In this document: piece after piece, positions 4,836 through 57,410 of the stretch
How positions within the stretch are numbered: the stretch's first letter is position 1
Layout of the letters: each line of letters begins with the position of its first letter
Origin: Aureimonas sp. AU4
GTDB taxonomy: Bacteria > Pseudomonadota > Alphaproteobacteria > Rhizobiales > Rhizobiaceae
Length of the DNA stretch: 64,000 bases
Reading direction: 5' to 3'
Assembly: GCF_001463765.1 (NCBI RefSeq)
Contig: NZ_BBWK01000054.1
Location: forward strand, 1 to 64,000
Made by a program: the position numbers and the translations under genes
The notes under the pieces: generated by a model
Databases searched by the model: none
Seen by the model: only the letters and a program-made list of their open reading frames with translations
What the model was told of the DNA's origin: nothing

Positions 4836-4839
4836 CGGG

Positions 4840-43161: not shown

Positions 43162-45621
43162 TCATGCCGCCCCCACCTCCACGGTCCGGGCCTCGCCCGG
43201 ACCGACCGCCGCGCCGATCTGCGCGACCGATACCGCGAGGCGGCCGGACGCTTCCGCACCCAGCCCCGCCTCGATCTCCTCCCGTGCGACGACGCGGGCG
43301 GGCGTTGTGGTCTCCACGACCATCTCCCGGCCGCCTGGCGTGAGAAGGCGCACGCGATAGCGCTCCGTCGCCTCGCCGAGCGCGATCTCCTCGTCGAAGG
43401 GATCGAGCGGGGCGCGGCTGCGGCGGATCCAGCGGACGGAAAGGCCTCCCGCCTGTCTTCGGGCGCGCAGGTGAACCGGCGCGAGCGGCAGAAGCGCGCG
43501 ACGGCCGAGCGCGAGGGTTTCGCGAACCACCGCCCCGTCGTCGAGCGCGCGCCCCGCCGGGGCGACGAGCCAGTCGAGCGCCGCGCCGGTCTCGCTTTCG
43601 GCGAGCGGAACCGGCACGCAGCGCTCGTCGAGAAGCACGAAGCGCGCGCCGGCTGCCGCCGCGGATCCGCCGGTGGCGCCGCGCCCACGCACGAGGCCCG
43701 CCAGACGGAAGCGATTCGGCGCCACCTCCTCCGCCTCGCGGAACTGCAGCACTTCCCAGCGCCCCTCGGCGCTCTCCACGGCGGCAAGGTTCGCGCCCGC
43801 CAGGAGCCGCGCCGCGTCGATCGACTGGAGCGCGCCGCCCGCCAGATCCACGAGGATGCGGTTCGTCCGGTCGAGACAGCTCTCGCCGCCGGCGCCCAGC
43901 GGCTCGACCAGCCGTCCCATCGCGGCCGGCTGCGACACGCGAAGGCGCGGGCGCATGTCGCCGCCGCCGCGCGAGACGAGTACCTCGCAGGGCACGAAGG
44001 GCCGGGCCGCGAGAGCGACGCGCGGCCCTTCGCCGTCCGGCAGGAGGCCGAGCGTGGGAAGATCGAGGAAGGCGGCAAGCGGGCGCGAGGGAAAGGCCGG
44101 CCCGCCTGACACGGGTCCCGCCGGGGGCATCCGCCCCCCGCCGTCGCCGAGCGCCGGGGCGAACGCCGCTCGCCGCGCCTCGACGCGCCGCATCAGCTCG
44201 TCCTCGATCCGCTCGACGCTCCAGACGCCCGCCTCGCCCGCGATGCGCAGCTCGTCGCCCGGCACGACCTCGAGGCGGGCGGGAGAGAGCGCGAAGCTCG
44301 CGGTCTCGCCGGTTCCGGCCAAGCGACGCAGGAGCCCGGCGGCGAGCCGTCGCGCCGCGTCCTCGCCCAGCGTCAGCGGCAGTTCCACCATCTCCTGCCG
44401 GGGCCGGTCCGCCTCTCCGCGCACGGCGTCGGCGACGCCCGGCTGATAGGCGCGCGCCGGATCGCTGTAGGCGAGGACGAGTTCGCCGGGCCGGTCGCGC
44501 TCCTCCGCGCGCCGCCGCTCAACGAGCGGCCCCCCGTCCTCCTCCGCGACCGCGTCGATCTCGTGAACGGCACGCACGCGGTCCACCGAGCGAAGGCGCA
44601 GCACGCCGTCCACCTGCGCCGCCTCGACGCCGCATACGCGCATCAGCTCCTCGATCTGCGCGCGCGCGCTGCCGGGCGTGGCCAGCAGGAAGCCGCCGAC
44701 CACCCCCTCGACACCGGAGGCGTCCACCGTCGTCACGCCATGGTCGGCGAGAAGCGCGACCAGAAGTTCGCGCAAGGGTGCGGCGCCGAGCCGCCCGCTC
44801 AGCCAGTGCCCCCGCTCCCAGTTCGCGCCGTCGCGCCATACGTCCCGGGCCGCCGGGAAGGCGGGATAGGGTCGCGCGTCCCAGCACCAGAGATGGATCG
44901 CGTCCGGTGGCACCATGCGCTCGCCGGTGAGCGGCGAGAGGGGATTGTCGCTCTCGCGAAAGCCCGGCGCGGCCGGGTCCCAGCGCCGGAGGTGAGCGTC
45001 CAGAAAGGCGCGCTGCGCCGCGTCGTCGCGGTGCCCGGCCGAAAACCAGGGGAAAGCGCTTTCCGCCGACTTGGGGTCCAGGAACACGTTCGGCCGGTTC
45101 GCGCCCCGTTCGATCGCCGGGCAACCGAGCTCGGTGAACCAGATGGGCTTCGAGCGCGGCATCCAGGCCGTGTCGGCGGCCATCTCCTGCCCGCCGCGCC
45201 GTTCACGATGTCGGTTCTCCCACCACGAGCGGATGTCCTTGGCGCGAAACACCCAGGGCTTGCCGAGGCCGTCCGTGATCGCCGTGCGCCGACGCGCGCG
45301 CCGGTCGGCCTCGTCGCGGTAGAACCAATCGAACCACTCGCCCGCCGCGATGCCTTCGCCGAGCGCCGCCTCGTCCAGCGCCGAGGCCGCCCCGTCGGGC
45401 GAGGTGCCCTCCGCGTCCTCGTCACGCCAGTCGAGAAGCGGGAGGTAGTTGTCGATGCCGACCGCCCCGATCGCCGGATCGGCCCAGAGCGGGTCGAGGT
45501 TGAAGAAGACGTCGCCCAAGCCGTCCGCCGGCTGGAAGCCGAAATACTCGCTCCAGTCCGCCGCATAGGTCACGGTCGCCTCCGGCAGAACCGCCTTCAC
45601 GTCGCGCGCCAGCGCCACCAT
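43162..45621 (-). CDS. GTA gp15, C-terminal part after the stop codon
   Basis: An 819-residue frame beginning MVALARDVKAVLPEATVTYA. It contains the second part of the TIM-barrel domain (AADWSEYFGFQP, WFDWFYRDEADRR, IWFTELGCPAIERG) and the Phage-tail_3-like region after it. The C-terminal region has beta-rich segments such as RGATGGSAAAAGARFVLLDERCVPVPL. In intact GTAs this part makes the tip of the tail. Its ATG lies directly after the stop codon, with GGCG only, so its independent translation would depend on restart by the terminating ribosome. Confidence 0.7.
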   Translation of the reverse strand: MVALARDVKAVLPEATVTYAADWSEYFGFQPADGLGDVFFNLDPLWADPAIGAVGIDNYLPLLDWRDEDAEGTSPDGAASALDEAALGEGIAAGEWFDWFYRDEADRRARRRTAITDGLGKPWVFRAKDIRSWWENRHRERRGGQEMAADTAWMPRSKPIWFTELGCPAIERGANRPNVFLDPKSAESAFPWFSAGHRDDAAQRAFLDAHLRRWDPAAPGFRESDNPLSPLTGERMVPPDAIHLWCWDARPYPAFPAARDVWRDGANWERGHWLSGRLGAAPLRELLVALLADHGVTTVDASGVEGVVGGFLLATPGSARAQIEELMRVCGVEAAQVDGVLRLRSVDRVRAVHEIDAVAEEDGGPLVERRRAEERDRPGELVLAYSDPARAYQPGVADAVRGEADRPRQEMVELPLTLGEDAARRLAAGLLRRLAGTGETASFALSPARLEVVPGDELRIAGEAGVWSVERIEDELMRRVEARRAAFAPALGDGGGRMPPAGPVSGGPAFPSRPLAAFLDLPTLGLLPDGEGPRVALAARPFVPCEVLVSRGGGDMRPRLRVSQPAAMGRLVEPLGAGGESCLDRTNRILVDLAGGALQSIDAARLLAGANLAAVESAEGRWEVLQFREAEEVAPNRFRLAGLVRGRGATGGSAAAAGARFVLLDERCVPVPLAESETGAALDWLVAPAGRALDDGAVVRETLALGRRALLPLAPVHLRARRQAGGLSVRWIRRSRAPLDPFDEEIALGEATERYRVRLLTPGGREMVVETTTPARVVAREEIEAGLGAEASGRLAVSVAQIGAAVGPGEARTVEVGAA

Positions 45622-45624
45622 CGC

Positions 45625-47049
45625 CTACACGAAGGGAAAGCGGTCGCGCTCGTCGCGAAGCCGCGTGAGGCCCACCATCTCCGAGCCGATCACGAAGGCG
45701 TCCACACCGCCCGCCAGCCGCGCCAGATGGGCTTGATGCAGCACCATGCGCCGCAGGCTCCACTCGGCGGGCCCGCGGTAGCGCACGCGCCCGGCCTCTA
45801 GCCGGAAGTCTGAGGGCGCGGCGCGACCGACGAAGCGCTCGACCTCGGTCCTCGCCCCGGCGGTCCGGTCCGCCGAACCCGGTCGTCCGGGCGCGACGTC
45901 CAGCGTCATGCGCCCGCGCCAGGGATAGCTGGCCTGCGCCGCCTCGCCATAGGGATCCGCCAGCGCGTTGCCGGCCGGCACGTCCATCAGGAGAAAGGGA
46001 TAGAGCGTGACCTTCAGTCCGCGCGCCCTGAGATCGAGGATCGCGCGCACGACGCCCGCGTCCGAGGGCGTCCCGCCATAGGCCGGTCCACCGTCCGCCT
46101 GGCTGACGAGGTAGGCCCCGTCCCGTCCGGTCTCACCGACGCGCCACGCTTCCGTCTCGTCCCGCACCGCCGTCTCGACGCCCGGCCGCACCTGCGCCCG
46201 CCCCACGCGCAGGTCGTCCGCGAACCAGGCGACCACCAGCGCCGCGCGCTCGAGCCTCGGGCAGAGCGCCGCAAGCTCGTCGATCGAGGCGGTCCAGTCG
46301 CTCGCTCCGTGCAGGACGTGCCGGTTCGCGAGACGGTCCTCGCCGAGCCCGATGCGTTCGCGCACCACGACCGGGTCGAGTCCGTGCTCGCTCGCGCCGG
46401 GAATCACCGTCACGGCGCGGATGTTCGCCTCCAGCGCGCCGACCGGGCGCACGACCTCGCAGGCGATCTGGGGGATGCGGTTGCCCCAGCGCTCCAGGGC
46501 CAGGCGCTCGAACACGACATAGGCGAGGCCGCGATAGGCCGGCGCGTTGCCGCGTCCCTGCCGCGCCTCGATCAGCGGGTCGGGCGCTTGGCCCTCGTCA
46601 CCGGGGTGGAGGCGCCAGTTGACGAGCGAGAGATCCATCTCCTCGCCGTCCGCCCATATGCGGCGCACGCTTGCCACCGGTCCCTCGCACAGCCCGATCG
46701 CGACATTGCCGAAGTAGCTGTAGCTCATGCTTTCGGCGCCGCCGCCGCGCCCGCCCTTGCCGCCCTGCCGCTCGGTGGTCGCGACCTCCTCGAAGCGCGT
46801 CGTCCAGATCACCTGTCCGGCGATGCGCGCCGTGCCATAGAGCCGGGGCACCCCCGCTCCCTCGTCGGCCTCGAGAATGCGCGCGGCCCCGAGGCGCGGC
46901 CCCTCGCGCCGCGCCGCCCCGCCGAACAGCCGCTTGTCGATTGCCGCGCCGCCGAGCGCCCCGAGCGCGCGGCCCGCCATCGCCCCGAACGGGCCGCCGA
47001 CGAGACCGCCCGCCACACCGCCCGCAGCCTGGAGAAGGATCGTCGCCAT
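45625..47049 (-). CDS. GTA gp15, N-terminal part ending in the TAG
   Basis: A 474-residue frame beginning MATILLQAAGGVAGGLVGGPFGAMAGRALG, the Gly/Ala-rich start typical of GTA megatrons. It continues with a compact beta-rich domain (ARILEADEGAGVPRLYGTARIAGQVIW) and the start of the TIM barrel (FVIGSEMVGLTRLRD), where it stops after RFPFV. The ATG is 6 bases after gp14. The first part could still mount on the tail hub, but would lack the fibre region. Confidence 0.75.
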   Translation of the reverse strand: MATILLQAAGGVAGGLVGGPFGAMAGRALGALGGAAIDKRLFGGAARREGPRLGAARILEADEGAGVPRLYGTARIAGQVIWTTRFEEVATTERQGGKGGRGGGAESMSYSYFGNVAIGLCEGPVASVRRIWADGEEMDLSLVNWRLHPGDEGQAPDPLIEARQGRGNAPAYRGLAYVVFERLALERWGNRIPQIACEVVRPVGALEANIRAVTVIPGASEHGLDPVVVRERIGLGEDRLANRHVLHGASDWTASIDELAALCPRLERAALVVAWFADDLRVGRAQVRPGVETAVRDETEAWRVGETGRDGAYLVSQADGGPAYGGTPSDAGVVRAILDLRARGLKVTLYPFLLMDVPAGNALADPYGEAAQASYPWRGRMTLDVAPGRPGSADRTAGARTEVERFVGRAAPSDFRLEAGRVRYRGPAEWSLRRMVLHQAHLARLAGGVDAFVIGSEMVGLTRLRDERDRFPFV

Positions 47050-47055
47050 GAGACC

Positions 47056-47496
47056 TCACGGAAAAAGAAAGCTGCCGCAGATGCGCCGTGCCCAGGCGCC
47101 CGCCAGCGGCGAGGACACCACCGCCGCGCCCTCCAGCGCATGGAGGATGCGCGGGCCAGCCGCGTCCGGCTCGTCGAGGATCGCGCAGTGCCGCGCCGGC
47201 CGGCCGTCGCGCCAGCGAAAGAGCACGAGATCGCCCGGCCGCGCCTCGCTCGGCGGCAGGGCCGCGAAGTGCCGCCGGGCCGCCTCCGACAGGGGGTCGC
47301 CGGCGGAAAGCTCCGCCCAGTCCGCCGCATAGGCCGGCAGCGCCTCGGGCTCCCCGCCGTAGAGCCTGCGCCACACGCCGCGCACGAGGCCCAGACAGTC
47401 GCAGCCGACGCCCGCGCGGCTGCCCTGGTGGCGGTAGGGCGTGCCGAGAAAGCGGCGCGCCTCGTGCAGCGCGGCCACGCGTCGGTCGCCCGTCAC
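47056..47496 (-). CDS. GTA gp14, NlpC/P60-type tail peptidase
   Basis: A 146-residue NlpC/P60 peptidase that opens peptidoglycan during GTA entry. Catalytic Cys34 lies in VGCDCLGLVRG and the His in PARHCAILDE. The family matches the GTA/phage peptidase TIGR02219 by motif. The overlap of 4 bases with gp13 indicates coupled translation. Confidence 0.88.
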   Translation of the reverse strand: MTGDRRVAALHEARRFLGTPYRHQGSRAGVGCDCLGLVRGVWRRLYGGEPEALPAYAADWAELSAGDPLSEAARRHFAALPPSEARPGDLVLFRWRDGRPARHCAILDEPDAAGPRILHALEGAAVVSSPLAGAWARRICGSFLFP

Positions 47497-48374
47497 GGCA
47501 CCACCGGCGAGCCGTCATGCGCCCCGTCGCGCTTGGCGACCCCGAGCGCCGCGTCGTTGCCCGGCATGTGCGGGAAACCGCGAAAGTTGAGCGCGTTGCG
47601 GAAGCGGTCGCGGCAGGTCGCGAACGACCGGTCGCAGCCTGCCAGAAGGCGCAGCGCCGCACCTGGCACGGCGCGCACCCGCGCCTCCGGCTCGGCCAGG
47701 GCCAGCCGCCAGTCGCCGGGCGTTTCCGTTTCGGTAAGCCCGGCGAGAAACAGCGTCTCGTTGCCGAGCACCACGCGACCGAGCCCAAAGAGCGCCGCGT
47801 CGATCCCGGGTCCGAGCCGCGCCACGAGCCGGCCCTCGCCGCCTTCGACGAGCGTGCCATCGCGGCGCCACGCCGCCGCCGTCAGGTCGACGCCGCAGCG
47901 CCGGTCGCCGAGCACGGCATCGCAGCGGCGCCGGTAGGTGCGCCCGTGCACGTCGTCGAGCCGCGCGGCCAGCCCGCGCAGTTCCGCCGAGAATCCGCCC
48001 CCCGCGCGCCGGATGGGTCCGAGTTCGGCGACGTCGACGAGGACGTGCAGCGCCGGCTCGCTCCAGTCGACGCGAAACACCTCGATCCGCGCCCCGTCGA
48101 AGCCCCCGGCCGCAATGTCCTCCTCGCTCAGCGCATCGCAGGACAGCGCCCCCCCCACCGCCGCCGTGCCGGCGACAAGCCCGGCCGTCCCTTCCGCCTC
48201 GCCAGCCGTCCAGCCGCTCGCGGCATGAAACAGCGTCCCATCGAAGCGAAGATCCGCGTCGTGGTCGGTGAAACCCAGCACCGCGCCGTCGCGCCGCGTC
48301 AGGCGCCAAGCGCTGGCCAGCGTCGTCGCCGGCTCGCGCAGCCGCTCGGCCAGTCCTGCGGGGAGCTCTCTCAT
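47493..48374 (-). CDS. GTA gp13, tail hub protein (DUF2163)
   Basis: A 293-residue DUF2163 protein of the GTA baseplate hub. Typical parts are RLTRRDGAVLGFTDHDAD, AELRGLAARLDDVHGRTYRRRCDAVLGDRRC, and the C-terminal CDRSFATCRDRFRNALNFRGFPHMPGND. Conserved cysteines around 155 and 260 are present. Its ATG overlaps the gp12 stop (ATGA). It links the distal tail to the peptidase and megatron. Confidence 0.9.
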   Translation of the reverse strand: MRELPAGLAERLREPATTLASAWRLTRRDGAVLGFTDHDADLRFDGTLFHAASGWTAGEAEGTAGLVAGTAAVGGALSCDALSEEDIAAGGFDGARIEVFRVDWSEPALHVLVDVAELGPIRRAGGGFSAELRGLAARLDDVHGRTYRRRCDAVLGDRRCGVDLTAAAWRRDGTLVEGGEGRLVARLGPGIDAALFGLGRVVLGNETLFLAGLTETETPGDWRLALAEPEARVRAVPGAALRLLAGCDRSFATCRDRFRNALNFRGFPHMPGNDAALGVAKRDGAHDGSPVVP

Positions 48375-49012
48375 GCGCGCACCTCGACAAGCGGGATGGT
48401 CGGAATCTCGCCGGCCTCGAAGGCCGCGAGGTTGATCGCGAGATGGTCGATATCGAAGCGCACCGGCACGTCGAACAGGAAGCCTGCCGTCACGGCGGCG
48501 CCGGCTGCGGGCGCCGCGTCGAAGCGCAGCAGGCCGCTCGAGGCGTCGAGCATGAAGCCGGACGCGATCTCCGAGCCCGCGACGGCGACGCGCAGCGTGT
48601 CGGCCACGGGCTTTGCGATCGGCCGCTCGTAGCCGCCCTCGCCCATGCCGTAGCGCTTCACGAGCTGGAACGCTGCCTGCTCCCCGTCGCCGATGCCCAG
48701 CACCTGGTCGAAGGCCGTCACGGCCAAGCCGAAGCGCGCCGAGGAGTGATCGAACGGGTCGCGGAAGCGGAAGGCGACGAGCCGCCCGCGTCGGGCCTCG
48801 AAGAAGTCGAGCACGATCGCAAGGTCGGCCAGGGCCTTCACGCCCGAGCCCGCGTCGTAGCGCCGGGCCGAGTGTCGCGCGCGCTGGTTGCGGTTCTCGA
48901 AGCCCGTCGACAGGCGCACGATATCGGTACGCCGCTCCGGGCCGCCGCTCGTGTTGAGACTGAGCCGCAAGGGAAAGCGCTCGTCGCAGAAGGAGGCGAT
49001 CCGCATCGTCAA
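48371..49012 (-). CDS. GTA gp12, distal tail protein (DUF2460)
   Basis: A 213-residue DUF2460 protein. It contains CDERFPLRLSLNTSGGPERRTDIV, GFENRNQRARHSARRYDAG and RFRDPFDHS, all conserved in GTA and lambdoid distal-tail proteins. It should form the ring between tail tube and hub. It overlaps gp11 by 4 bases and gp13 by 4 bases. Confidence 0.92.
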   Translation of the reverse strand: MTMRIASFCDERFPLRLSLNTSGGPERRTDIVRLSTGFENRNQRARHSARRYDAGSGVKALADLAIVLDFFEARRGRLVAFRFRDPFDHSSARFGLAVTAFDQVLGIGDGEQAAFQLVKRYGMGEGGYERPIAKPVADTLRVAVAGSEIASGFMLDASSGLLRFDAAPAAGAAVTAGFLFDVPVRFDIDHLAINLAAFEAGEIPTIPLVEVRA

Positions 49013-49611
49013 AGCCCCCGCTGTCCGCGCAGCGCCGCGCGCGCCAGCATGGCCTGGATCTGCCCCTCGGCGCGGCGAAAGCTCGGCGCGTCCGGTGTCG
49101 AGACGTTGAACACCACCGTCGTGGGCCCGCCCCGCGCGCCGCCGCCGCTGGTCGCCACGCCGAGGCTTCCGTCGCTGCCACGCCGGAGCGGCAGGATCGC
49201 CTCCGCCCCCGCCTCGCCCATCAAGCCGGCCGCGCCGCCCATCGGAAAGAAGCTTGGCGCCCGCACGACGCCGCCCTTGGCGAAGGGCACGACGCGCTGC
49301 GGTGCGGCCGCACCCGCCGCGCCGCCGCCGAGCGCCCCACCGAGGCTGCCGATGAGCCCGTTCAGGAGGTTGCCCGCCAGAGTCCCGACCGGCCGCAGCG
49401 CGCTGTCGAGCGCGATCCCGCTGATGCGGGTCGCCAGCTGCTTCAGGACCCCTTCCAGCGACTTGCCGCCGCCGGACGCGTTGCGGAAGGCGCTCGTGAA
49501 GGCCGAGCCCAGCGCCCCCGCCCGCAGCTGCAGGTCGCCCATCGCCCGGTCGAAGCCGCGTGTGTCGGCCTCCACCGCGATGCGCATCGTATCCGCGCCG
49601 TCCTGCGCCAT
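49009..49611 (-). CDS. GTA gp11, tape measure protein
   Basis: A 200-residue protein with a Gly/Ala-rich middle (GGALGGGAAGAAAPQRVVPFAKGG) and the C-terminal GAEAILPLRRGSDGSLGVATS typical of phage tape measures. The short length matches the short tail of GTAs. It begins 1 base after the chaperone gene and overlaps gp12. It sets tail length and plugs the tube. Confidence 0.88.
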   Translation of the reverse strand: MAQDGADTMRIAVEADTRGFDRAMGDLQLRAGALGSAFTSAFRNASGGGKSLEGVLKQLATRISGIALDSALRPVGTLAGNLLNGLIGSLGGALGGGAAGAAAPQRVVPFAKGGVVRAPSFFPMGGAAGLMGEAGAEAILPLRRGSDGSLGVATSGGGARGGPTTVVFNVSTPDAPSFRRAEGQIQAMLARAALRGQRGL

Positions 49612-49612
49612 G

Positions 49613-49831
49613 TCATCCTCCGTCGGGAAAGCGTTGCATCAGCGCGTCGAGCGCAGCGCGGCCGGGATGGCCGAGCCGTTCGGGTGCGTGCGCCTCGAGA
49701 AGGGCGGCGAGCTCGCGCGGCGCGAGGCGCCAGAACTCGGCGGGCGCAAGGCCAAGCGCGAGCGCGGCGCGCATCGCCCGGTCCCAGGGAAAGGCCGCCG
49801 CGCCCGCCGCGTCGGGCGCGGCGGCGCTCAA
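49613..49831 (-). CDS. GTA tail assembly chaperone (gp10.1-like)
   Basis: A 72-residue protein with a FPWDRAMRAALALGLAPAEFWRLAPREL core, the FPW and W.L.P.EL arrangement of the rcc01693-type tail assembly chaperone. I put the start at a TTG that overlaps the gp10 stop in a TTGA, which agrees with the 4-base overlaps of neighbouring genes; the longer open frame upstream has no resemblance. It is needed for tail-tube assembly, not for the final particle. Confidence 0.8.
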   Translation of the reverse strand: MSAAAPDAAGAAAFPWDRAMRAALALGLAPAEFWRLAPRELAALLEAHAPERLGHPGRAALDALMQRFPDGG

Positions 49832-50169
49832 GGGCGAGCGGGCGTTTCCCCGCCGGCTCCCCCGAAGGCCGCATCCAGAAGCTCGGCCGCAACCCGTGCC
49901 GCGCCCGCCACCCCGCCCTCGATGGGAAGGTTTGCCAATTCCGCGTCGCTGACGCAGGCGCCGGCGCCCCGCAGGCCCGCGCCGAGGATGCGCGTCAGGT
50001 CGCGCGCCGACAGGTGCCCCGAGCCGAAGCGCGCGGCGAGCTGTCCGAGGTCCTCCAGCGCGAAGGCGTCCTCCAGCTCGGCCAGCGCCCCGAGCGTCAG
50101 GCAAAGCCGCCGCTCCTCGCCCCCGATCACGGCCGAGACCTCGCCGCGCCGCCGGTTCGCCGCCATCAC
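49828..50169 (-). CDS. GTA gp10, tail assembly protein
   Basis: A 113-residue GTA family protein. The conserved part is GEVSAVIGGEERRLCLTLGALAELEDAF, followed by LTRILGAGLRGAG. It resembles tail-tube assembly proteins (chaperone type) that follow the major tail gene in GTAs. Its ATG overlaps the gp9 stop in an ATGA; the TTG-started chaperone overlaps its own stop. Confidence 0.85.
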   Translation of the reverse strand: MMAANRRRGEVSAVIGGEERRLCLTLGALAELEDAFALEDLGQLAARFGSGHLSARDLTRILGAGLRGAGACVSDAELANLPIEGGVAGAARVAAELLDAAFGGAGGETPARP

Positions 50170-50576
50170 AGCGCCTCGAAGACGAGCGCGCCGGCCGATT
50201 CCAGCGTCATCTCGAATGACACCTCGCCGTCGTGCTCGCCGCCGTATTCCAGCGCCGTCACCTGGAACGGACCGGTCACCGTGCCGAAGTCCGGCACCAC
50301 GGCCTGGAAGGGCACGGGGCGCCCCTCGAAGAACACCCGGCGGAGCGCCGCGTCGGAGGCCGCGTCCTTGAAGAGGCCGGCGCCCGAGAGCGAGGCACGC
50401 TGCACGCCCGCCCCGCCCAGAAGCTCGCGCCAGCGCCCGGCGCTCTCGCCGTCGGTCACGTCCACGATCTCGGCGTTCATGGCCAGCCGGCGCGTGCGCA
50501 GGCCGGCGACGGTCTGGAACGGCGCGCCGTCCAGCGAGATCTTGAGAAGAAGGTCCTTGCCGCGCTGCGCGCCCAT
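50166..50576 (-). CDS. GTA gp9, major tail tube protein
   Basis: A 136-residue TP901-1-family tail protein. The opening GKDLLLKISLDGAPFQTVAGLRTRRLAMNAEIVDVT is diagnostic, and FKDAASDAALRRVFFEGRPVPFQ matches the family core. It forms the tail tube in many copies per particle. It is separated from gp8 by a terminator-like hairpin, so its expression may be set apart from the head genes. Confidence 0.92.
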   Translation of the reverse strand: MGAQRGKDLLLKISLDGAPFQTVAGLRTRRLAMNAEIVDVTDGESAGRWRELLGGAGVQRASLSGAGLFKDAASDAALRRVFFEGRPVPFQAVVPDFGTVTGPFQVTALEYGGEHDGEVSFEMTLESAGALVFEAL

Positions 50577-50602
50577 GGTTGGCGATCCCCGATCGTGAAA
50601 CG

Positions 50603-50631
50603 AAAAAGGGGCGGTCCCTTCGGACCGCCCC
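50603..50631 (-). terminator. Intrinsic terminator-like hairpin between gp8 and gp9
   Basis: On the minus strand GGGGCGGTCC and GGACCGCCCC form a perfect 10-bp stem with a tetraloop, followed by TTTTT. It lies 29 bases after the gp8 stop and 26 bases before the gp9 ATG. It splits head-and-connector genes from tail genes within one operon. No promoter is visible in the short space after it. Confidence 0.85.
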
Positions 50632-50660
50632 TTGCGATGGCGTGGATGGCTGGAATGCCG

Positions 50661-51071
50661 TCAGGCGAGCGGTTCGGTCACCGCCCGGAAGCGCAGGATG
50701 CCGTGATAGGCAGGCGAGTCCGGCTCCTGCCGGGCCTCGGCGAACTGGAGGCGCAGGTTGACGAGCCGGTGGCCATCCATCGGCAGCGTCGCGTCGTGAA
50801 GCCTGTTCGTCACCTTGTCCATGATCGCGTAGGTCTCCTGCTTCGAGCCGCCGCGTCCCCAGACGTGAAGCGTGAGAATGTGCTCGGAGCCGTCCTCCGA
50901 GCCGGTGGACCAGTCCACCACCGCGGTGCGCCCAAGCGTCAGGTAGGGAAAGGCGGCGCGCTCCGGCTGCCGGTCGAAGACCTTGGGCCCGCCCAGCATC
51001 GCGGTCAGCGCCGGGTCGCCCATCAGCGCGGAGACGATCGTGGTCTGAAGTTCGGCGCTGGCCTGCATCAT
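50661..51071 (-). CDS. GTA gp8, tail terminator protein (DUF3168)
   Basis: A 136-residue DUF3168 protein. LTAMLGGPKVFDRQPERAAFPYLTLGRTAVVDWSTGS and ILTLHVWGRGGSKQETYAIMD fit the GTA tail terminator, which closes the head end of the tail. The first codons are ATGATG; I took the outer one. A 65-base AT-richer gap upstream holds a pair of direct repeats. Confidence 0.9.
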   Translation of the reverse strand: MMQASAELQTTIVSALMGDPALTAMLGGPKVFDRQPERAAFPYLTLGRTAVVDWSTGSEDGSEHILTLHVWGRGGSKQETYAIMDKVTNRLHDATLPMDGHRLVNLRLQFAEARQEPDSPAYHGILRFRAVTEPLA

Positions 51072-51094
51072 GGCCGGTGATCTCCCTGTTTCAC

Positions 51095-51119
51095 GATATG
51101 CGTGTCACGGATGATATGC
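51095..51119. repeat. Direct GATATGC repeats upstream of gp8
   Basis: GATATGC occurs at 51095-51101 and 51113-51119, start-to-start distance 18 bases, in the only AT-rich stretch inside the GTA operon, upstream of gp8 on the minus strand. It could be a regulator or promoter site, but it may be chance. Confidence 0.35.
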
Positions 51120-51136
51120 ATTGAAATGTGGCGTGA

Positions 51137-51313
51137 TCAGGCACGCGCGTCCAGCCGATCCGTTAACTTTTCCTCACCTTCGAACGGCTTTCCACCGCCC
51201 GACGATGCTCCGTCCAGCCGCAGCTCCGCCTCGCGGGCCAGCCGCTCGCGCAGCCGTCGCAGCATCAGCGCCCGCAGCTTCGCGCCGGCCGGTCGCCTCA
51301 CAAGCGCCCTCAC
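51137..51313 (-). CDS. Small basic protein between GTA gp7 and gp8
   Basis: A 58-residue basic protein with a helix MRALVRRPAGAKLRALMLRR and a Glu/Arg-rich rest. The GTG start overlaps the gp7 stop as GTGA and is preceded by GAGGAGGAGG, a strong ribosome-binding site within the gp7 end. These are the same features used by neighbouring genes, so I accept it as a gene. It has no function I recognise; similar tiny frames lie here in other GTA clusters in my memory, not verified. Confidence 0.6.
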   Translation of the reverse strand: MRALVRRPAGAKLRALMLRRLRERLAREAELRLDGASSGGGKPFEGEEKLTDRLDARA

Positions 51314-51642
51314 GCCTCCTCCTCGCAACGGCACACGAGGTAGCGACCCGTCTCGTCCGGGTCGTGCATCGTACGGATCACCAGCCGCCGCGCGCCGAGA
51401 CGAAAGGCCATGCCGCGCTCCAGCCCGGCGCGGCGGCGCAGCGTCACGCGATGCGTGACGTTCGCGATCCGCTGTCCCGCCTCCGGCCCGACCTCGACGC
51501 GGGCGGGCTCCACCCGCACCGACGTCTCGCCCACCTCGCGCCAGCGTTCGGTCGCCCCGCCCATGGCGTCGGGCACCGGCTCGTTGCGCTCGATCAGCGC
51601 GCGGTGCCGCAAGAGCCCTGCATCCAGAAACAGAGTCGACAT
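51310..51642 (-). CDS. GTA gp7, head-tail stopper protein
   Basis: A 110-residue head-closure protein (SPP1 gp16-like). The core LRHRALIERNEPVPDAMGGATERWREVGETSVRVEP is diagnostic, with VTHRVTLRRRAGLERGMAFRLGARRLVIRT later. It closes the head after packaging. Its ATG shares one base with the gp6 stop. Its last codons carry the ribosome-binding site of the small gene that follows. Confidence 0.88.
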   Translation of the reverse strand: MSTLFLDAGLLRHRALIERNEPVPDAMGGATERWREVGETSVRVEPARVEVGPEAGQRIANVTHRVTLRRRAGLERGMAFRLGARRLVIRTMHDPDETGRYLVCRCEEEA

Positions 51643-52190
51643 CAGATCGCCAGGCTCCGGTAGGGCGACAGGAGGCTGCCGACGAGCGGCGGGATCGTGT
51701 CGGGCTGCAGCGCCGGGGCGAGCAGCGTGCGCGTCTCGTAGGCTGTCGCCGCCAGCCTTAGCATGGCGAGCCGCAGCGATTCCGGCACGAGTTCGGGCGG
51801 CAGGCCGGCGCGCAGTTCCAGTTCCGCCCCGCCGGCGGCCACCACCGGGCGGCGCCAGTGAAGCCGCGTGTGCAACGGCGAGTTCTCGAAGCGCAGGTCG
51901 GCCAGATCGCCCAGACGGGTCGCGCCGTCCTCGTCGAACAGCGTCACGCCGAGGATTGTCGTCACCGGCCGGAAGCCAAGCGCGAGCGTCCCGACCGCCG
52001 CCTCCACGACGAGGCGGCCCGTGCGTTCGGCGACGAGCAGCCCCGTGCGCCGCTCCACGTCCTCGCGCGCCGCCCGCAGGAGGCGCCCGAGCAGCGCGTC
52101 CTCGTCCTCGCGGTCCAGCCGCAGGAAGGCGCGAAGCTCCGCCACGCCCACCGGCTCCTCGGCCGGCGCGCTGGTCTCGATCCAGATCAT
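51642..52190 (-). CDS. GTA gp6, head-tail adaptor
   Basis: A 182-residue gp6-like head-tail connector. VGVAELRAFLRLDREDEDALLGRLLRAAREDVERRTG is the N-terminal helical signature of the HK97 gp6/phage connector family. It docks to the portal. A hairpin separates it from the capsid gene before it. Confidence 0.88.
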   Translation of the reverse strand: MIWIETSAPAEEPVGVAELRAFLRLDREDEDALLGRLLRAAREDVERRTGLLVAERTGRLVVEAAVGTLALGFRPVTTILGVTLFDEDGATRLGDLADLRFENSPLHTRLHWRRPVVAAGGAELELRAGLPPELVPESLRLAMLRLAATAYETRTLLAPALQPDTIPPLVGSLLSPYRSLAI

Positions 52191-52254: not shown

Positions 52255-53517
52255 TCAGGCGTTGAAGGCGAGAAGCTTCGCCGCGTCGAAGTCCTGCACG
52301 CCGCCGCCCACGCGCTTGGTCGTGTAGAAGAGGACGTAGGGCTTGGCGGAATAGGGATCGCGCAGGACGCGCACGCCCTGGCGGTCCACCACGAGGTAGA
52401 AGCGCCCGAAGTCGCCGAAGGCGATGGCCTTCGCCCCGTTCGCGATGTCGGGCATGGCCTCGGCCTCGACCACGGGGAAGCCCATCAAGCTAGCGCGTCC
52501 GCCCGCCACGCTCGGCGGCGCCCAGAGGTAGTTTCCGTCCGCGTCCTTGAGCTTCCTCACCGCGCTCTGCGTGCGGCGGTTCATCACGAACGTGGCGTTC
52601 TGCCGGTAGCTGCCCTTCAGCGCGTAGACGAGGTCGATCAGCGCGTCGCCGCCGAGCCCCGGCAGGAAACCGCCGTTGGCCCCGGTCGCTACCGTCCCGA
52701 TCTTGCCCCAGGCCCAGTCGGCCTCGGCTGCGGTCGGGTAGGTCATGAAGCCCTTGGGCTTGGCGACCCCGTCGCCCGTCACGAAGGCCGCGCCCTCCTG
52801 GCCGGCGAAGGCCTGCTCCACTTCCTCGCCGAGCCAGCGGTCGAGATCCACCGCCGCGTCGTCGAGAAGCGCCGAGGTCGCCGCCGGCATGGCGTAGAGC
52901 TCCATGGTCGGGAAGCTCAGCTCCGAGAGCTGCGGCGCATTCGTCTGCGGCCTCGCGTCGGCCTCGCCCACCCAGCCTGTCTGCGCGCCGTTCACCGCGA
53001 AGGGCTTGCGCAGAACGGCCGAAGACACGGCGCGAACGCTTGCGATCGAGCGGATCGGCGAGACGCTGGCGAGACGCCGCCCGATCTCCGTCTCTGTCTC
53101 GGGCGGCACGAGGAAGCCGCCGTCCTGGCCCGACAGGCCCGACATCGCCTTCTCCTCGAGGCGACGGATGCGCCCCTCGTCGCCGCCGCGCACGTAACTC
53201 TCGAAGGCGGAACGGTGCTCGCTCGGCTCGGCCGACATGCCCTCCGCGCCCCCGCCCAGCGGCGGCCGCAGGCCCTTCAGGACGAGACGCTCGAGGCGCC
53301 GCTCCTGCTCGTCCACCGCACGCGAGATGCGGTCCGCCTTTTCCTGCGTCACCGTATCGGCGCTCATGCGCCGCTCGATCTGGCTCAAGCGCTCGTCGTT
53401 CGCCTCGCGGAAGCCCTCGAAGGCGCGCATGAACTCGTCGAAGGCGTCCGCCGTCTCGCCGTTGCGCGGCGCGTCTGCTGCCTTGGTCTCGTGCGACGGC
53501 ATGGGGATGGTGTGCAT
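52255..53517 (-). CDS. GTA gp5, HK97-type major capsid protein
   Basis: A 420-residue capsid protein. The first 110 residues are a charged, helical scaffold region (KADRISRAVDEQERRLERLVLKGL), probably removed by the protease. The core starts with SGLSGQDGGFLVPPETETEIGRRL and contains FVTGDGVAKPKGFMTYPT, the typical HK97 motif. It makes the T=3-like head in GTAs. AAGGA lies 8 bases before the ATG. It is followed by the hairpin. Confidence 0.93.
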   Translation of the reverse strand: MHTIPMPSHETKAADAPRNGETADAFDEFMRAFEGFREANDERLSQIERRMSADTVTQEKADRISRAVDEQERRLERLVLKGLRPPLGGGAEGMSAEPSEHRSAFESYVRGGDEGRIRRLEEKAMSGLSGQDGGFLVPPETETEIGRRLASVSPIRSIASVRAVSSAVLRKPFAVNGAQTGWVGEADARPQTNAPQLSELSFPTMELYAMPAATSALLDDAAVDLDRWLGEEVEQAFAGQEGAAFVTGDGVAKPKGFMTYPTAAEADWAWGKIGTVATGANGGFLPGLGGDALIDLVYALKGSYRQNATFVMNRRTQSAVRKLKDADGNYLWAPPSVAGGRASLMGFPVVEAEAMPDIANGAKAIAFGDFGRFYLVVDRQGVRVLRDPYSAKPYVLFYTTKRVGGGVQDFDAAKLLAFNA

Positions 53518-53552
53518 CGGGTCGATCCTTGTTGGCTTTCGGGGTGAAGGGG

Positions 53553-54095
53553 TCAGCGCGCCGCGAGCGGCGGCGCCAGCGGCGGCAGGAGCAGCCGCCG
53601 CGCCGCCTCGACGAGGCGCAGGGAAAGGTCGCGGGCCGGCAGCGTGCGCGAGCGCGTCTGCGTCACGCGCGCGGCCTCCTGCATCGGGAAGGTGACGATC
53701 GAGATCTCCCAGAGATCGAGCTCGACGAGGCTGCGCCGCGCCCGCCCGTCGTGCACGGGCGCCGAGCGCCGCGTGTGGAAGCCGATCGACAGCCCGTCGA
53801 TCGCCCCGGCGCGCAGGAGCTCGAAGGCCTCGCGCCCTGCGCCCGACTGAAGCGCCAGCCGTCCTTCCGCGAAGAGCCCGACCTGATCCTCGGCGAGCCG
53901 CGTCCAGACGCCGATCGGCCGAGCCGGGTCGTGCTGCCAGAGCATGCGGATGCCCGCCGCCCCGCGCCGCAGGAGCGATCGGCGGAAGGCGCCGCGCTCG
54001 ACACGGTCGCCGCCGTTGTCGGGCCGGTCGAAAAGGCTGGCATAGCCCCTCACGGTGCCGTCCGCGTCCAGCCGCGCGGGCTGCGCCGCGCTCAC
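53553..54095 (-). CDS. GTA gp4, prohead protease
   Basis: An S78-type protease of 180 residues. Key stretches are VRGYASLFDRPDNGGDRVERGAF, WQHDPARPIGVW (catalytic His) and IDGLSIGFHTR (catalytic Ser). It cuts the capsid scaffold region. The start is a GTG that overlaps the DUF6107-like gene as GTGA; the longer open frame upstream has no resemblance. Confidence 0.9.
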   Translation of the reverse strand: MSAAQPARLDADGTVRGYASLFDRPDNGGDRVERGAFRRSLLRRGAAGIRMLWQHDPARPIGVWTRLAEDQVGLFAEGRLALQSGAGREAFELLRAGAIDGLSIGFHTRRSAPVHDGRARRSLVELDLWEISIVTFPMQEAARVTQTRSRTLPARDLSLRLVEAARRLLLPPLAPPLAAR

Positions 54096-54439
54096 GGCTG
54101 GCCTCCCCGGCGGCGCTGGCGGAACAGCCCGTCCGCAAAGCGCCCCAGCGCTCCCAGCGCCCACCAGGCCGAAAGGCTCGCCGCCGCCGAGCCCATCACC
54201 GCCGTCTCGGTGGCGCCCAGCGCCTGCCCGAAGCCGAGATGGTCGGCCAGAAGCAGCCCCGCCGGGCCGCCGAAGACCAGCCCGGTCGCGAGCCCGATCA
54301 GGAAGCGGGTCGCCGCCTCGCGCCGTCCCTCCGGCAGGAGATAGGCGATCGAGATCACCGAGCCGCCGATCGCCCCGACGCATTTGGCGCCGAGCAGCGC
54401 GAGCGGGGACGCGACGTCCCCGGCCACCGTCGTATCCAT
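54092..54439 (-). CDS. DUF6107-like membrane protein in the GTA
   Basis: A 115-residue protein with three to four hydrophobic segments (GAIGGSVISIAYLLP, FLIGLATGLVFGGPAGLLLA, ATETAVMGSAAASLSAWWALGALG). It sits between portal and protease, the place of the gp3.5 proteins of Hyphomicrobiales GTAs. I think it is DUF6107, from position and composition. Role unknown; it may act in assembly or at the membrane. It overlaps gp4 by 4 bases. Confidence 0.7.
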   Translation of the reverse strand: MDTTVAGDVASPLALLGAKCVGAIGGSVISIAYLLPEGRREAATRFLIGLATGLVFGGPAGLLLADHLGFGQALGATETAVMGSAAASLSAWWALGALGRFADGLFRQRRRGGQP

Positions 54440-54468
54440 GGCTTGCCTCCATCAGTGGATGTGAAAGT

Positions 54469-55680
54469 TCAGCGCACGCCCGCGCGCGGGCCGTAGCCGA
54501 CCGCCTCGCGCTTCTCGTCCTCGGACAGGAACTCCGCTCCCCCGAGCCGTCGCCACAGCGCCTCGCGCTCCAGCGCCAGGCCCTCGATCCGGTCGGCGTC
54601 GAAGCCGAGCCTCAAGGCCGGTTCGCCGTGAAGCGCGGCCAGCCAGTCGCCCACCGCCGCGCAGAGACGCGACACGAGCGGCAGGACCGTCAGCCGGAAC
54701 AGCGCCCGGTTGGCTTCGGCGTAGTTCGCGTAGGTCGCGTCGCCCGGGATGCCGAGCAGCATGGGCGGCACGCCGAAGGCGACCGCGATGTCGCGGGCCG
54801 CGCCGTTGCGCGCCTCCACGAAGTCCATGTCGCGGGGGGAAAGCGCCATGGTCTTCCAGTCGAGCCCGCCTTCCAGCAGCATCGGCCGCCCGGCGCGCGC
54901 CGCGCCGACATAGCCGTTCTCCAGCTCGCTCTTCAGCCGGTCGAACTGGTCGGGCGAAAGGTTCGAACCGTCGCCCGGCTGGTAGACCAGCGCACCGCTC
55001 GGCCGCGCCGAGTTGTCGAGAAGCGCCTTGTTCCAGCGCGTCGCGGCGTTGTGGAGGTCGAGCGCCGTGCGCGCGGCCTCCAGCGGGGCGAAGCCGTCCG
55101 CCTCGCCGAGCGGATGAAAGAGCCGGATCGCGAGGACCTGGGGCGGCCGTCCGCCCTCGCCTTCGAGACTCAGGCGACGCACGCTCGCGCCATGCCGCAG
55201 CTCGACCGCCGCCGGCCAGCCGTCGTTCCCGGCCAGCGTGCGCACCGTGTCGGGCCGCAGCGCATGAAGAAGGCGCGGCTCGCCGTCGAGCATCACCGCC
55301 TCAAGGTGCGCCGCCCCCGAAAGAAGAAGGTGCCCGCACAGCGCCTCCACCAGCGCCGCCCCGTCCTGCGCCCCGTTCGGCCGGCGCAGCAGCCCGAGCA
55401 TCGGGTGCTCGGCCACCTCGCGGGCGCCGTCGTAGAGGAGAAGCGGCACCGCCGCCGTGCTTTCGGCCAGAAGCCGCACGCAGCGATAGGCGACCGGGTT
55501 GCGCATGAAGCCCTCGCGCGCCGCCGACACGTAGCCCCGCTCGCTCCAGCTCGCCCCGTCCGTCTGCCCGCCCGCGAACACGAGCGAGCCGCCGGCGAAC
55601 CCGCCTTCCTTGCGCTCGGGCGCACGCGCGCCCGCCGGCCCGCGCGCCCAGGCACGCAGCCTCTCCACTGGTCCCACCAT
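54469..55680 (-). CDS. GTA gp3, portal protein
   Basis: A 403-residue HK97-type portal. AAREGFMRNPVAYRCVRLLAESTAAVPLLLY is the N-terminal conserved portion, and KALLDNSARPSGALVY, GLDWKTMALSPRDMDFVEARNGAARDIAVAFGVPPMLLG match the core. It forms the dodecameric DNA gate. It begins 10 bases after the terminase gene. Confidence 0.93.
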   Translation of the reverse strand: MVGPVERLRAWARGPAGARAPERKEGGFAGGSLVFAGGQTDGASWSERGYVSAAREGFMRNPVAYRCVRLLAESTAAVPLLLYDGAREVAEHPMLGLLRRPNGAQDGAALVEALCGHLLLSGAAHLEAVMLDGEPRLLHALRPDTVRTLAGNDGWPAAVELRHGASVRRLSLEGEGGRPPQVLAIRLFHPLGEADGFAPLEAARTALDLHNAATRWNKALLDNSARPSGALVYQPGDGSNLSPDQFDRLKSELENGYVGAARAGRPMLLEGGLDWKTMALSPRDMDFVEARNGAARDIAVAFGVPPMLLGIPGDATYANYAEANRALFRLTVLPLVSRLCAAVGDWLAALHGEPALRLGFDADRIEGLALEREALWRRLGGAEFLSEDEKREAVGYGPRAGVR

Positions 55681-55690
55681 CGATGTCTCC

Positions 55691-57007
55691 TCAGATCGTC
55701 CGAACGCGCGGCTCGATCACCGGGCCGCCCAGCGCCGTCACCGCCCAGACCAGCGCGTCGAGCCGGTCCGGCGAGCGGCCGTTCGACAGGCCGTCGGGGC
55801 CGAAGTCGGCCATCTCGTCCTCGAGTTCGGGAAAGCTCCCGACGTGGTGCACCAGACCCTGCTCGTAGAGCGCGGCCACCGGCTCGGCGCGCAGCCACTT
55901 GCCGCGCGTCGCCCGCACGCCGGATACCGGCACCCCCGGCGCCACCGCCCGGATCACGGCCTCCACCATGTCGCCGCCCTGGTTCACCTCGGCGACGATC
56001 CGGTCGGCCTCGAGCTCGCGAAACAGCGTCACCGCCCGCTCGGCCCATTGCGGCGGCGAGAGGCCGCGCCGCGAGCGGTCGGCGAGGACGTGGATGATGC
56101 CGTCCACCCCGCGCCCCGCGGCCACGATGCCGCAGGCGTCGGAGCGCCGCGTCGCCGAGGCCGGCGGGTCGACCGCCACCACGATGCGCCGCATCTCGGG
56201 TGCGACGCGCAGCCGCCCGGCGTCGATCCGCTCGCGGCGGAACAGCGCGTCCTCGCGCCCCTCCACCAGCTCGCCGTCGAGTTCCTGGCGCCCGAGCCGC
56301 GAGCCGCCGTAGCGCCGCTCCATCGCCGCGATGAAGCCGCCCGCGAGGTTCTCGCGGTTTTCCGCCGTCGGCATGCGCGTCACCGCCGTGCCCTCCTCGG
56401 CGAGCAGCCGTTTCACGAGAGGCACCGGTCGCGGCGTCGTGGTGAGCACCATGCGGGGGTCCTCGCCGAGGCGCAGTCCCAGCTGCAGGTTGTCGAAGGT
56501 CGCCTCGTCATGCGTCCACTTGGCGAGCTCGTCGCCCCAGGCCGCGTCGAACTGGTAGCCCCGCAGGCTGTCGGGGTCTTCGGAGGAGAAGATCTGCGCC
56601 ACCGCCCCGTTGGAGAAGACGAGCCGGCGGCGCGTCGCCTCGAAGACCGGGCGCTCGCCGTAGTCCAGAGACCGCAGGCCGCTCTCGCCCTCCACCATCA
56701 CCTCGCGCGCGTCGCCCAGCGTCTCGGCCACCAGTGCGATCCGGCCGCAGGGCCGCCCCGCGAAGGGCGCCTCGCTCAGCGCCTGCGCCCGGATCCACTC
56801 AGCCCCAGCCCGCGTCTTGCCCGAACCGCGACCGCCCATCAGCAGCCACTGCCGCCACGATCCGGCCGGCGGGCGTTGCGAGGGCCGCGCGATCGCGGCC
56901 CAGGGCGGCATGGCCCCGCGCAGGACGACGGGCGGCAGATCGCGGAGGCTTCGCTCCAGCTCCCGCCAGAACGCATCCGCCGTCGCGGCCTCCCCCGGCG
57001 TGCTCAC
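55691..57007 (-). CDS. GTA gp2, large terminase
   Basis: A 438-residue packaging motor. Walker A GGRGSGKT (58-65) and Walker B in QFDAAWGDELAKW (about 152-163) are present, then LTTTPRPVPLVKRLL (coupling motif). The C-terminal nuclease domain begins VVAVDPPASATRR, with the first acidic ligand. The GTG start overlaps the gp1 stop in a GTGA; upstream open frame has no resemblance. Confidence 0.93.
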   Translation of the reverse strand: MSTPGEAATADAFWRELERSLRDLPPVVLRGAMPPWAAIARPSQRPPAGSWRQWLLMGGRGSGKTRAGAEWIRAQALSEAPFAGRPCGRIALVAETLGDAREVMVEGESGLRSLDYGERPVFEATRRRLVFSNGAVAQIFSSEDPDSLRGYQFDAAWGDELAKWTHDEATFDNLQLGLRLGEDPRMVLTTTPRPVPLVKRLLAEEGTAVTRMPTAENRENLAGGFIAAMERRYGGSRLGRQELDGELVEGREDALFRRERIDAGRLRVAPEMRRIVVAVDPPASATRRSDACGIVAAGRGVDGIIHVLADRSRRGLSPPQWAERAVTLFRELEADRIVAEVNQGGDMVEAVIRAVAPGVPVSGVRATRGKWLRAEPVAALYEQGLVHHVGSFPELEDEMADFGPDGLSNGRSPDRLDALVWAVTALGGPVIEPRVRTI

Positions 57008-57306
57008 GCCAGCGCCTCCCCGCCCGCCTCGCGGCGGTGGAGCGCGCGCAGGCGCCGCATCAGTTCCTTGCGCAGCTGCTCGCCGTCGCCCGCCGCCGCC
57101 TCCGCGCCCGGCTCGCGCTCCAGGCGCGACAGGTCGAGAAGCTTCTCGAGCGTGCGCGCCAGAAGCGAGATCGCCTCGACCCGCGCCTTGCCGCTCGCCC
57201 CCTCGCCGCCTTCGCTTTCCAGGAGCTCGATCTCCTGCGTCAGCGCCCGCAGCAGCCGTTCCGAAAGGCGCGGCGGCGGCACCCGGGTCGTCTTCGTCTC
57301 GCCCAT
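57004..57306 (-). CDS. GTA gp1, small terminase subunit
   Basis: A 100-residue helical protein. SERLLRALTQEIELLESEGGEGASGKARVEAISLLARTLEKLLDLSRL fits the GTA gp1 family, now regarded as the small terminase (TerS). It would aid DNA packaging start. AAGGGGGA lies about 9 bases before the ATG. It is the first gene of the GTA operon, after a leader with a hairpin. Confidence 0.82.
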   Translation of the reverse strand: MGETKTTRVPPPRLSERLLRALTQEIELLESEGGEGASGKARVEAISLLARTLEKLLDLSRLEREPGAEAAAGDGEQLRKELMRRLRALHRREAGGEALA

Positions 57307-57338
57307 GATCGCTTTCCCCCTTCCGCACGGCGGACACG

Positions 57339-57376
57339 AAAAAGGGCGCCCCTTCCGTTTCCGGAAGCGAGCGCCC
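57339..57376 (-). terminator. Terminator-like hairpin in the GTA leader
   Basis: On the minus strand GGGCGC pairs with GCGCCC and CTTCCG with CGGAAG, with a TTTC-type loop and small internal loop, followed by TTTTT. It lies between the predicted GTA promoter and gp1, and 98 bases after the ycgN-like stop. It could end the ycgN-like transcript, or act as an attenuator in the GTA leader; both fit. Confidence 0.8.
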
Positions 57377-57410
57377 CTGGCGCAACCCGCACTATCTCGA
57401 CCGTGGACAA

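What the first reader, a model, noticed from the sequence alone, without database searches (positions are those of the whole stretch)
45600..45650. GTA megatron gp15 cut by one in-frame TAG with a restart ATG one codon later
Seen: the codons run GTG TAG GCG ATG GTG, with both halves in the same frame, and together they give the full gp15 length. All other GTA genes look intact. It could be a recent inactivating mutation, translational suppression of TAG, restart by the terminating ribosome giving a two-part protein, or a sequencing error. The ATG 3 bases past the stop makes restart plausible.
Basis: partly seen in the sequence, partly recalled or inferred. Interest (0 to 1): 0.7.

Follow-up and report, generated by a model that had tools for sequence, protein, structure and literature searches.

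The report
Gene transfer agent tail gene interrupted
A bacterium's domesticated-virus gene for the tip of a DNA-delivery particle is cut in two by a single stop codon, most likely a recent breakage like those found here and there in the same gene of unrelated bacteria.

Summary
On the minus strand the gp15 (megatron) gene of an RcGTA-type gene transfer agent runs 47049-43162 in one frame, with TAG at codon 475 (45625-45627), then GCG ATG GTG. The 15 congeners that have gp15 show no stop in it; Aureimonas jatrophae gp15 is 82% identical and uninterrupted. The stop cuts the peripheral TIM-barrel domain, ahead of the central domain that helps hold the tail tip to the tail. No second copy was found, no CUA-anticodon tRNA among 42 typed tRNAs, and TAG is an ordinary terminator nearby: suppression is unlikely. 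Restart at the ATG 3 nt on is possible, but it has no Shine-Dalgarno. One point favours restart: the Met is Leu in 35 of 35 other loci, a coincidence of about 1-3%. Across 284 genomes, 7 carry one nonsense codon in an otherwise complete gp15, at seven places; the other six have no in-frame ATG in the next five codons. Divergence shows no relaxed selection, so the lesion is recent, or a base-call error that cannot be tested here. Best reading: recent inactivating nonsense mutation. Interest low.

The parts
45625..47049 (-). gp15 (megatron) 5' part, ATG to TAG, 474 aa: iris/penetration, adhesin-like and first part of the peripheral TIM-barrel domain
   Evidence: aligns to RcGTA megatron 1-489; domain names from PMC7296036 passages
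45625..45627 (-). in-frame TAG, codon 475
   Evidence: sense codon in 35 of 35 other loci that cover the site
45619..45621 (-). possible restart ATG 3 nt past the stop (codon 477), at a position that is Leu in 35 of 35 other loci; no Shine-Dalgarno
43162..45621 (-). gp15 3' part, 819 aa if started at the ATG: rest of the TIM barrel, central and fibre-binding domains
47056..47496 (-). gp14, NlpC/P60 peptidase, open
47493..48374 (-). gp13 hub protein, open
48371..49012 (-). gp12 (DUF2460), open
49009..52190 (-). gp11 to gp6 (tape measure-like protein, tail tube, connectors), open
52255..53526 (-). gp5 major capsid, open
53553..57385 (-). prohead protease, DUF6107, portal, large terminase; 5' ends of the open frames used are not start-corrected

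Best explanation
A recent, lineage-specific nonsense mutation in gp15 (megatron) of an RcGTA-type gene transfer agent. Read by the standard code, translation ends after 474 residues (shown by the sequence). The product would keep the pore/iris helix and the adhesin-like domain but lose most of the TIM barrel and the central and fibre-binding domains. In RcGTA the central domain, with the hub, attaches the baseplate to the tail, so (inference) the tail tip is not built and particles, if made, do not deliver DNA.
For: Stop seen only here in the genus: none in gp15 of the 15 other gp15-bearing congeners; sense codon in 35 of 35 other loci covering the site. One TIM-domain match in the genome, so no spare copy (likewise one gp15 match). 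Domain map of RcGTA megatron from PMC7296036 passages and alignment. Site modelled in the first turn of a confident helix between two strands. One nonsense codon in an otherwise complete gp15 frame in 7 of 284 genomes, at seven positions, 5 TAG and 2 TAA. The GTA is dispensable in the genus: 5 of 20 congeners have no gp15 match, and of these 3 have no capsid match and 2 only capsids at 36-38% identity that I take for other phages.
Against: Both halves diverge no faster than in intact relatives (3' part: amino-acid to fourfold ratio 0.55 against 0.54-0.94 in eight other congener pairs; derived residues 20 in the window against 22 in A. jatrophae). That fits a recent lesion but equally fits continued use. 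The ATG two codons on is derived at an otherwise constant Leu, which a dead gene does not need. Loss of function is inferred, not shown.
Confidence: 0.66

Rival explanations
1. Two-part megatron: the ribosome ending at TAG restarts at ATG 3 nt on, and the two pieces assemble into a working tail tip.
For: Stop and start are only 3 nt apart, and very short distances are what termination-reinitiation needs (abstract of PMC10666635). The Met is derived: Leu in 35 of 35 other loci. Derived Met are 7 of 1279 gp15 columns with enough relatives, this one included, so a new Met within 2-5 codons by chance is about 1-3%. The 3' part shows no relaxed selection. The cut lies at a loop/helix border of the barrel.
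Against: No Shine-Dalgarno: predicted anti-SD duplex +0.6 kcal/mol; 96% of gp15 codon positions do as well or better; twelve GTA start codons give -5.7 to -9.5. SD removal substantially reduced reinitiation in 4 of 5 E. coli pairs (passages of PMC6728339). The same abstract stresses overlaps of 4 or 1 nt and says scanning is rare; here there is no overlap. None of the six other nonsense-carrying gp15 genes has an in-frame ATG within five codons after the stop; one (G171) has TTG as the fifth. Leu to Met occurs in the window at 2 of 217 otherwise constant Leu columns, this site being one.
Confidence: 0.13
2. Base-call or assembly error, or a change that arose in culture of the sequenced isolate.
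For: Draft assembly of 139 contigs; a single codon is involved; no relaxed selection; no second genome of the species is held (one genome per species).
Against: No other internal stop that I judge real among the 49 frames compared with A. jatrophae in the window, so the error rate is not visibly high; genome listed as 100% complete and 0.48% contaminated.
Confidence: 0.17
3. TAG is read through as an amino acid by a suppressor tRNA or a changed code.
For: The frame stays open for 820 codons after TAG.
Against: 43 tRNA hits: 42 with ARAGORN anticodons, none CTA; the 43rd reads CGU by eye from the alignment. TAG ends eight conserved frames in the window, seven of them also in A. jatrophae. Against this: I saw no tRNA for Ile-GAT, Ala-TGC or Arg-CCT, so the set is incomplete.
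Confidence: 0.03
4. A conserved, programmed split of gp15.
For: Two-frame and part-length gp15 forms exist elsewhere in the order.
Against: Stops and breaks lie at different places; of five split or partial cases opened in detail, one looks like a frameshift, two like remnants without the N part, one is a partial copy and one runs through N's. All 15 gp15-bearing congeners lack the stop.
Confidence: 0.01

Closest known systems
RcGTA megatron, Rcc01698/g15 (PDB 6tba, 6teh)
   Same: collinear homology over both halves (E 5.2e-115 and 3.8e-127), same place after gp14
   Different: one uninterrupted chain of 1304 aa; here a stop at the equivalent of about residue 490
Roseophage vB_DshS-R4C megatron (PDB 8gtc chain M)
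   Same: homologous over both halves; top fold match of the modelled barrel domain
   Different: phage, uninterrupted, 1447 aa
gp15 of the Aureimonas jatrophae GTA
   Same: 82% identity, same gene order, same length of 1295 codons
   Different: no stop; Leu where the window has the possible restart Met
Termination-reinitiation gene pairs (E. coli, Haloferax volcanii)
   Same: stop and start very close together
   Different: 3 nt apart rather than overlapping, no Shine-Dalgarno, junction not kept in relatives

Membership tests
RcGTA-type gene transfer agent head-tail cluster | collinear terminase, portal, protease, capsid, connectors, tail tube, gp12-gp15 | tested here: met
RcGTA-type gene transfer agent head-tail cluster | same chromosomal setting in a relative | tested here: met
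   same order and neighbours in A. jatrophae
RcGTA-type gene transfer agent head-tail cluster | packages and transfers host DNA | not testable with these tools
   needs particles
Megatron (PF13547 GTA_TIM, PF13550, PF23666) | family domains in order over one gene | tested here: met
   all three domains present in order, but GTA_TIM is divided by the TAG
Pseudogene by nonsense mutation | lineage-specific stop in an otherwise intact frame | tested here: met
Pseudogene by nonsense mutation | relaxed selection after the lesion | tested here: not met
   no excess of derived residues; a very recent lesion would not show it, so I call it a likely inactivating mutation rather than an established pseudogene
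Pseudogene by nonsense mutation | loss of product function | not testable with these tools
   inferred only
Termination-reinitiation gene pair | stop and start overlapping or very close | tested here: met
   3 nt, no overlap
Termination-reinitiation gene pair | Shine-Dalgarno ahead of the second start (usual, not absolute) | tested here: not met
Termination-reinitiation gene pair | junction kept in relatives | tested here: not met
Stop-codon suppression | CUA-anticodon tRNA in the genome | tested here: inconclusive
   none among 43 hits, but the tRNA set is incomplete

The most novel reading that the evidence does not exclude
The lineage survived a nonsense mutation in its DNA-delivery tip by gaining a restart ATG two codons on, turning a one-chain megatron into a two-chain one that splits a glycosidase-like barrel between two of its invariant glutamates and still works.
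Probability: 0.12. Interest if true: 0.5.

Novelty: new member of a known kind. Interest (0 to 1): 0.2.

Why it matters
It documents what looks like an early step of gene transfer agent decay: the longest GTA gene lost to a single codon while the other GTA genes stay open. It also gives a base rate: 7 of 284 genomes (about 2.5%) carry one nonsense codon in an otherwise complete gp15, so a single in-frame stop in this gene should not be read as recoding without peptide evidence.

Tried and rejected
Recurrent TAG in gp15 as a sign of recoding: the first extra full-frame cases (G034, G134, G395) were all TAG (the broken G028 row showed TAA), but the wider survey gave 5 TAG and 2 TAA at seven places, and one-step codons in this gene favour TAG anyway (182 TAG, 40 TAA, 64 TGA).

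Rows with stops not counted among the seven (15 such rows in all): TGA in G281 and G392 is the true terminator at the query end. G308 (TAA near the N end) and G382 (TGA at the end of a frame) are two-frame forms. G210, G028 and a partial copy in G183 are fragments in which no stop appeared in the aligned stretch. A short secondary copy in G269 was not fetched.

TAG in the G007 capsid lies at residue 9 of the query, most likely upstream of the real start. C-part-only genes in G210 and G114, beginning near the window's restart, looked like natural two-part genes, but no N part was found upstream in the stretches fetched, so I take them for remnants. G209's apparent split runs through N's and was left alone. 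Six rows besides gp15 carry flagged stops: gp8 (ends one codon earlier), two with a stop at codon 1 or 8 (start extensions), two poorly coding or antisense frames, and the frame at 2232-5674; only gp8 and the last (the window's own frame is open and the flagged part overlaps the neighbouring gene) were checked further, the rest is judgement.

No control gene of similar length was surveyed across the same genomes, so I cannot say whether gp15 breaks more often than other GTA genes. Paper searches for GTA with gp15 and stop codon (2 papers), GTA with Aureimonas (none) and GTA with pseudogene and stop codon (7 papers) showed nothing on this point in titles and abstract starts. Passages only were seen of PMC8601537, PMC7296036, PMC10276861, PMC6821227 and PMC6728339; abstract and outline of PMC10666635.

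Full report
What is there. The window is contig C54 of a 4.49 Mb draft genome in 139 contigs. The minus strand from about 57.4 to 43.2 kb carries an RcGTA-type head-tail cluster: large terminase, portal, DUF6107, prohead protease, capsid, connectors, tail tube, tape measure-like protein, gp12, hub gp13, NlpC/P60 peptidase gp14 and megatron gp15. In gp15 the codons read GTG TAG GCG ATG GTG, TAG at 45625-45627. The two pieces give consecutive parts of phrog_4271, of Pfam GTA_TIM (positions 1-45 and 49-299) and of the RcGTA megatron chain (1-489 and 495-1304).

Is it unique? In one search, 40 records were searched: three are the window itself, 35 others covered the site (34 if the contig present twice, L003/L032, is counted once), and two (L030, L031) gave no hit over it. 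All 35 have a sense codon there: among the 15 congeners 13 Glu and 2 Asp, more varied outside the genus. The residue two codons on is Leu in all 35 and Met only in the window. In the genus 16 of 21 genomes have the TIM domain and only the window's has a stop; the whole gp15 of the other 15 shows none (G002's lies on two contigs). The genome has one such match, so no spare copy.

How common are such stops? I searched the intact A. jatrophae gp15 in 284 distinct genomes (list checked): the 265 gp15-bearing genomes of an even draw of 397 from the order (which includes G000), plus 19 others from the genus and family; 283 matched at E 1e-30, G218 did not. Fifteen rows showed stops; 14 were read at the base level. 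Seven genomes have one internal nonsense codon in an otherwise complete frame: G000 at 475, G034 at 501, G134 at 693, G395 at 723, G171 at 275 (all TAG), G118 at 952 and G248 at 1026 (both TAA), in A. jatrophae numbering. The other eight rows are explained in Tried and rejected. None of the other six full-frame cases shows an in-frame ATG in the five codons after its stop. Other genomes have gp15 in two frames or in part (for example G308, G382, G391, G380, G221, G250, G234, G404); I did not count these fully. One search's batch was chosen to include the cases then known, so the rate should be read from the whole 284 only.

How old? Polarised by nine or ten congeners, derived residues in the 5' part are 8 in the window and 13 in A. 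jatrophae (35 unresolved), in the 3' part 20 and 22 (132 unresolved). The ratio of amino-acid to fourfold-site divergence for the 3' part is 0.55 for this pair against 0.54-0.94 in eight other, partly overlapping, congener pairs. So there is no sign of relaxed selection: the stop is young, or the gene still works, or the base is wrong.

What would it do? In RcGTA the megatron has iris/penetration (1-46), adhesin-like (47-229), peripheral (230-744), central (745-984) and fibre-binding (985-1304) domains; the megatron's central domain and the hub's attachment domain attach the baseplate to the tail (PMC7296036, passages). The window's stop falls in the peripheral domain. A model of that domain from A. 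jatrophae (12-row alignment, 11 distinct; mean pLDDT 68, pTM 0.78) puts the site at the fourth residue of a confident helix (248-263) between strands 227-232 and 268-274. The best Foldseek match is the R4C megatron, followed by GH113 beta-mannanases (E from 4e-8, TM-score about 0.36 by query length). Of five invariant glutamates in the alignment, residue 233 follows strand 227-232 and 416 lies in strand 412-417, as clan GH-A catalytic pairs do (recalled, not tested); the cut lies between them. A 474-residue fragment without the central domain should not assemble a tail tip (inference).

Could it be rescued? Suppression: 43 tRNA hits, 42 typed, none CTA; the untyped one reads CGU by eye. TAG closes eight conserved frames in the window, seven of them also in A. 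jatrophae (three further frames ending in TAG were set aside as poorly coding or antisense). Restart: the distance is short (abstract of PMC10666635), but the anti-Shine-Dalgarno match is poor: +0.6 kcal/mol, against -6.3 for gp15's own start and -5.7 to -9.5 over twelve GTA start codons; a thirteenth coordinate, labelled gp5, was not a start codon and gave -0.4; the GTG right after the ATG gives -2.4; spacing was not enforced. SD removal reduced reinitiation in 4 of 5 E. coli pairs (PMC6728339 passages). The derived Met is the main point in favour: derived Met make up 7 of 1279 gp15 columns in the window, so a new one within two to five codons of the stop has a chance of about 1-3%, before allowing for its being noticed after the fact. 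ATG/GTG/TTG within five codons follows a quarter of all gp15 codons.

Verdict. A stop found only in this genome at this site; most likely a recent nonsense mutation in a dispensable particle gene. Read error and restart are the live rivals; suppression and a programmed split are not supported.

Noticed in passing
A1 and model m8f873602d49e; A. jatrophae gp15 residues about 225-745: The megatron peripheral domain resembles GH113 beta-mannanases (Foldseek E from 4e-8); two of its five invariant glutamates sit at barrel strand ends, so it may be an active glycosidase.
   Followed up: partly
L131 (G010): A congener's GTA keeps terminase, portal, gp14 and gp15 but shows no match for DUF6107 and gp4-gp12 and only the end of gp13; about 5 kb of ORFs that I did not identify lie in their place.
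   Followed up: partly
G005, G012, G014, G015, G018: Five of 20 congeners have no gp15 TIM match; three of them have no capsid match and two only capsids at 36-38% identity.
   Followed up: partly
L089 (G000:C18:9072-9172): Odd tRNA-like gene, 30.6 bits, G+C 0.51, enlarged D-arm region, anticodon loop UUCGUAA; ARAGORN does not call it.
   Followed up: partly
L124-L128 (G380, G221, G250, G234, G404): gp15 in two overlapping or abutting frames at differing places, as if frameshifted or split; not checked in sister species.
   Followed up: no
G003:C1:2774253-2778197: A second full-length gp15-like gene (45% identity to A. jatrophae gp15) in a congener, besides its 61% copy.
   Followed up: no
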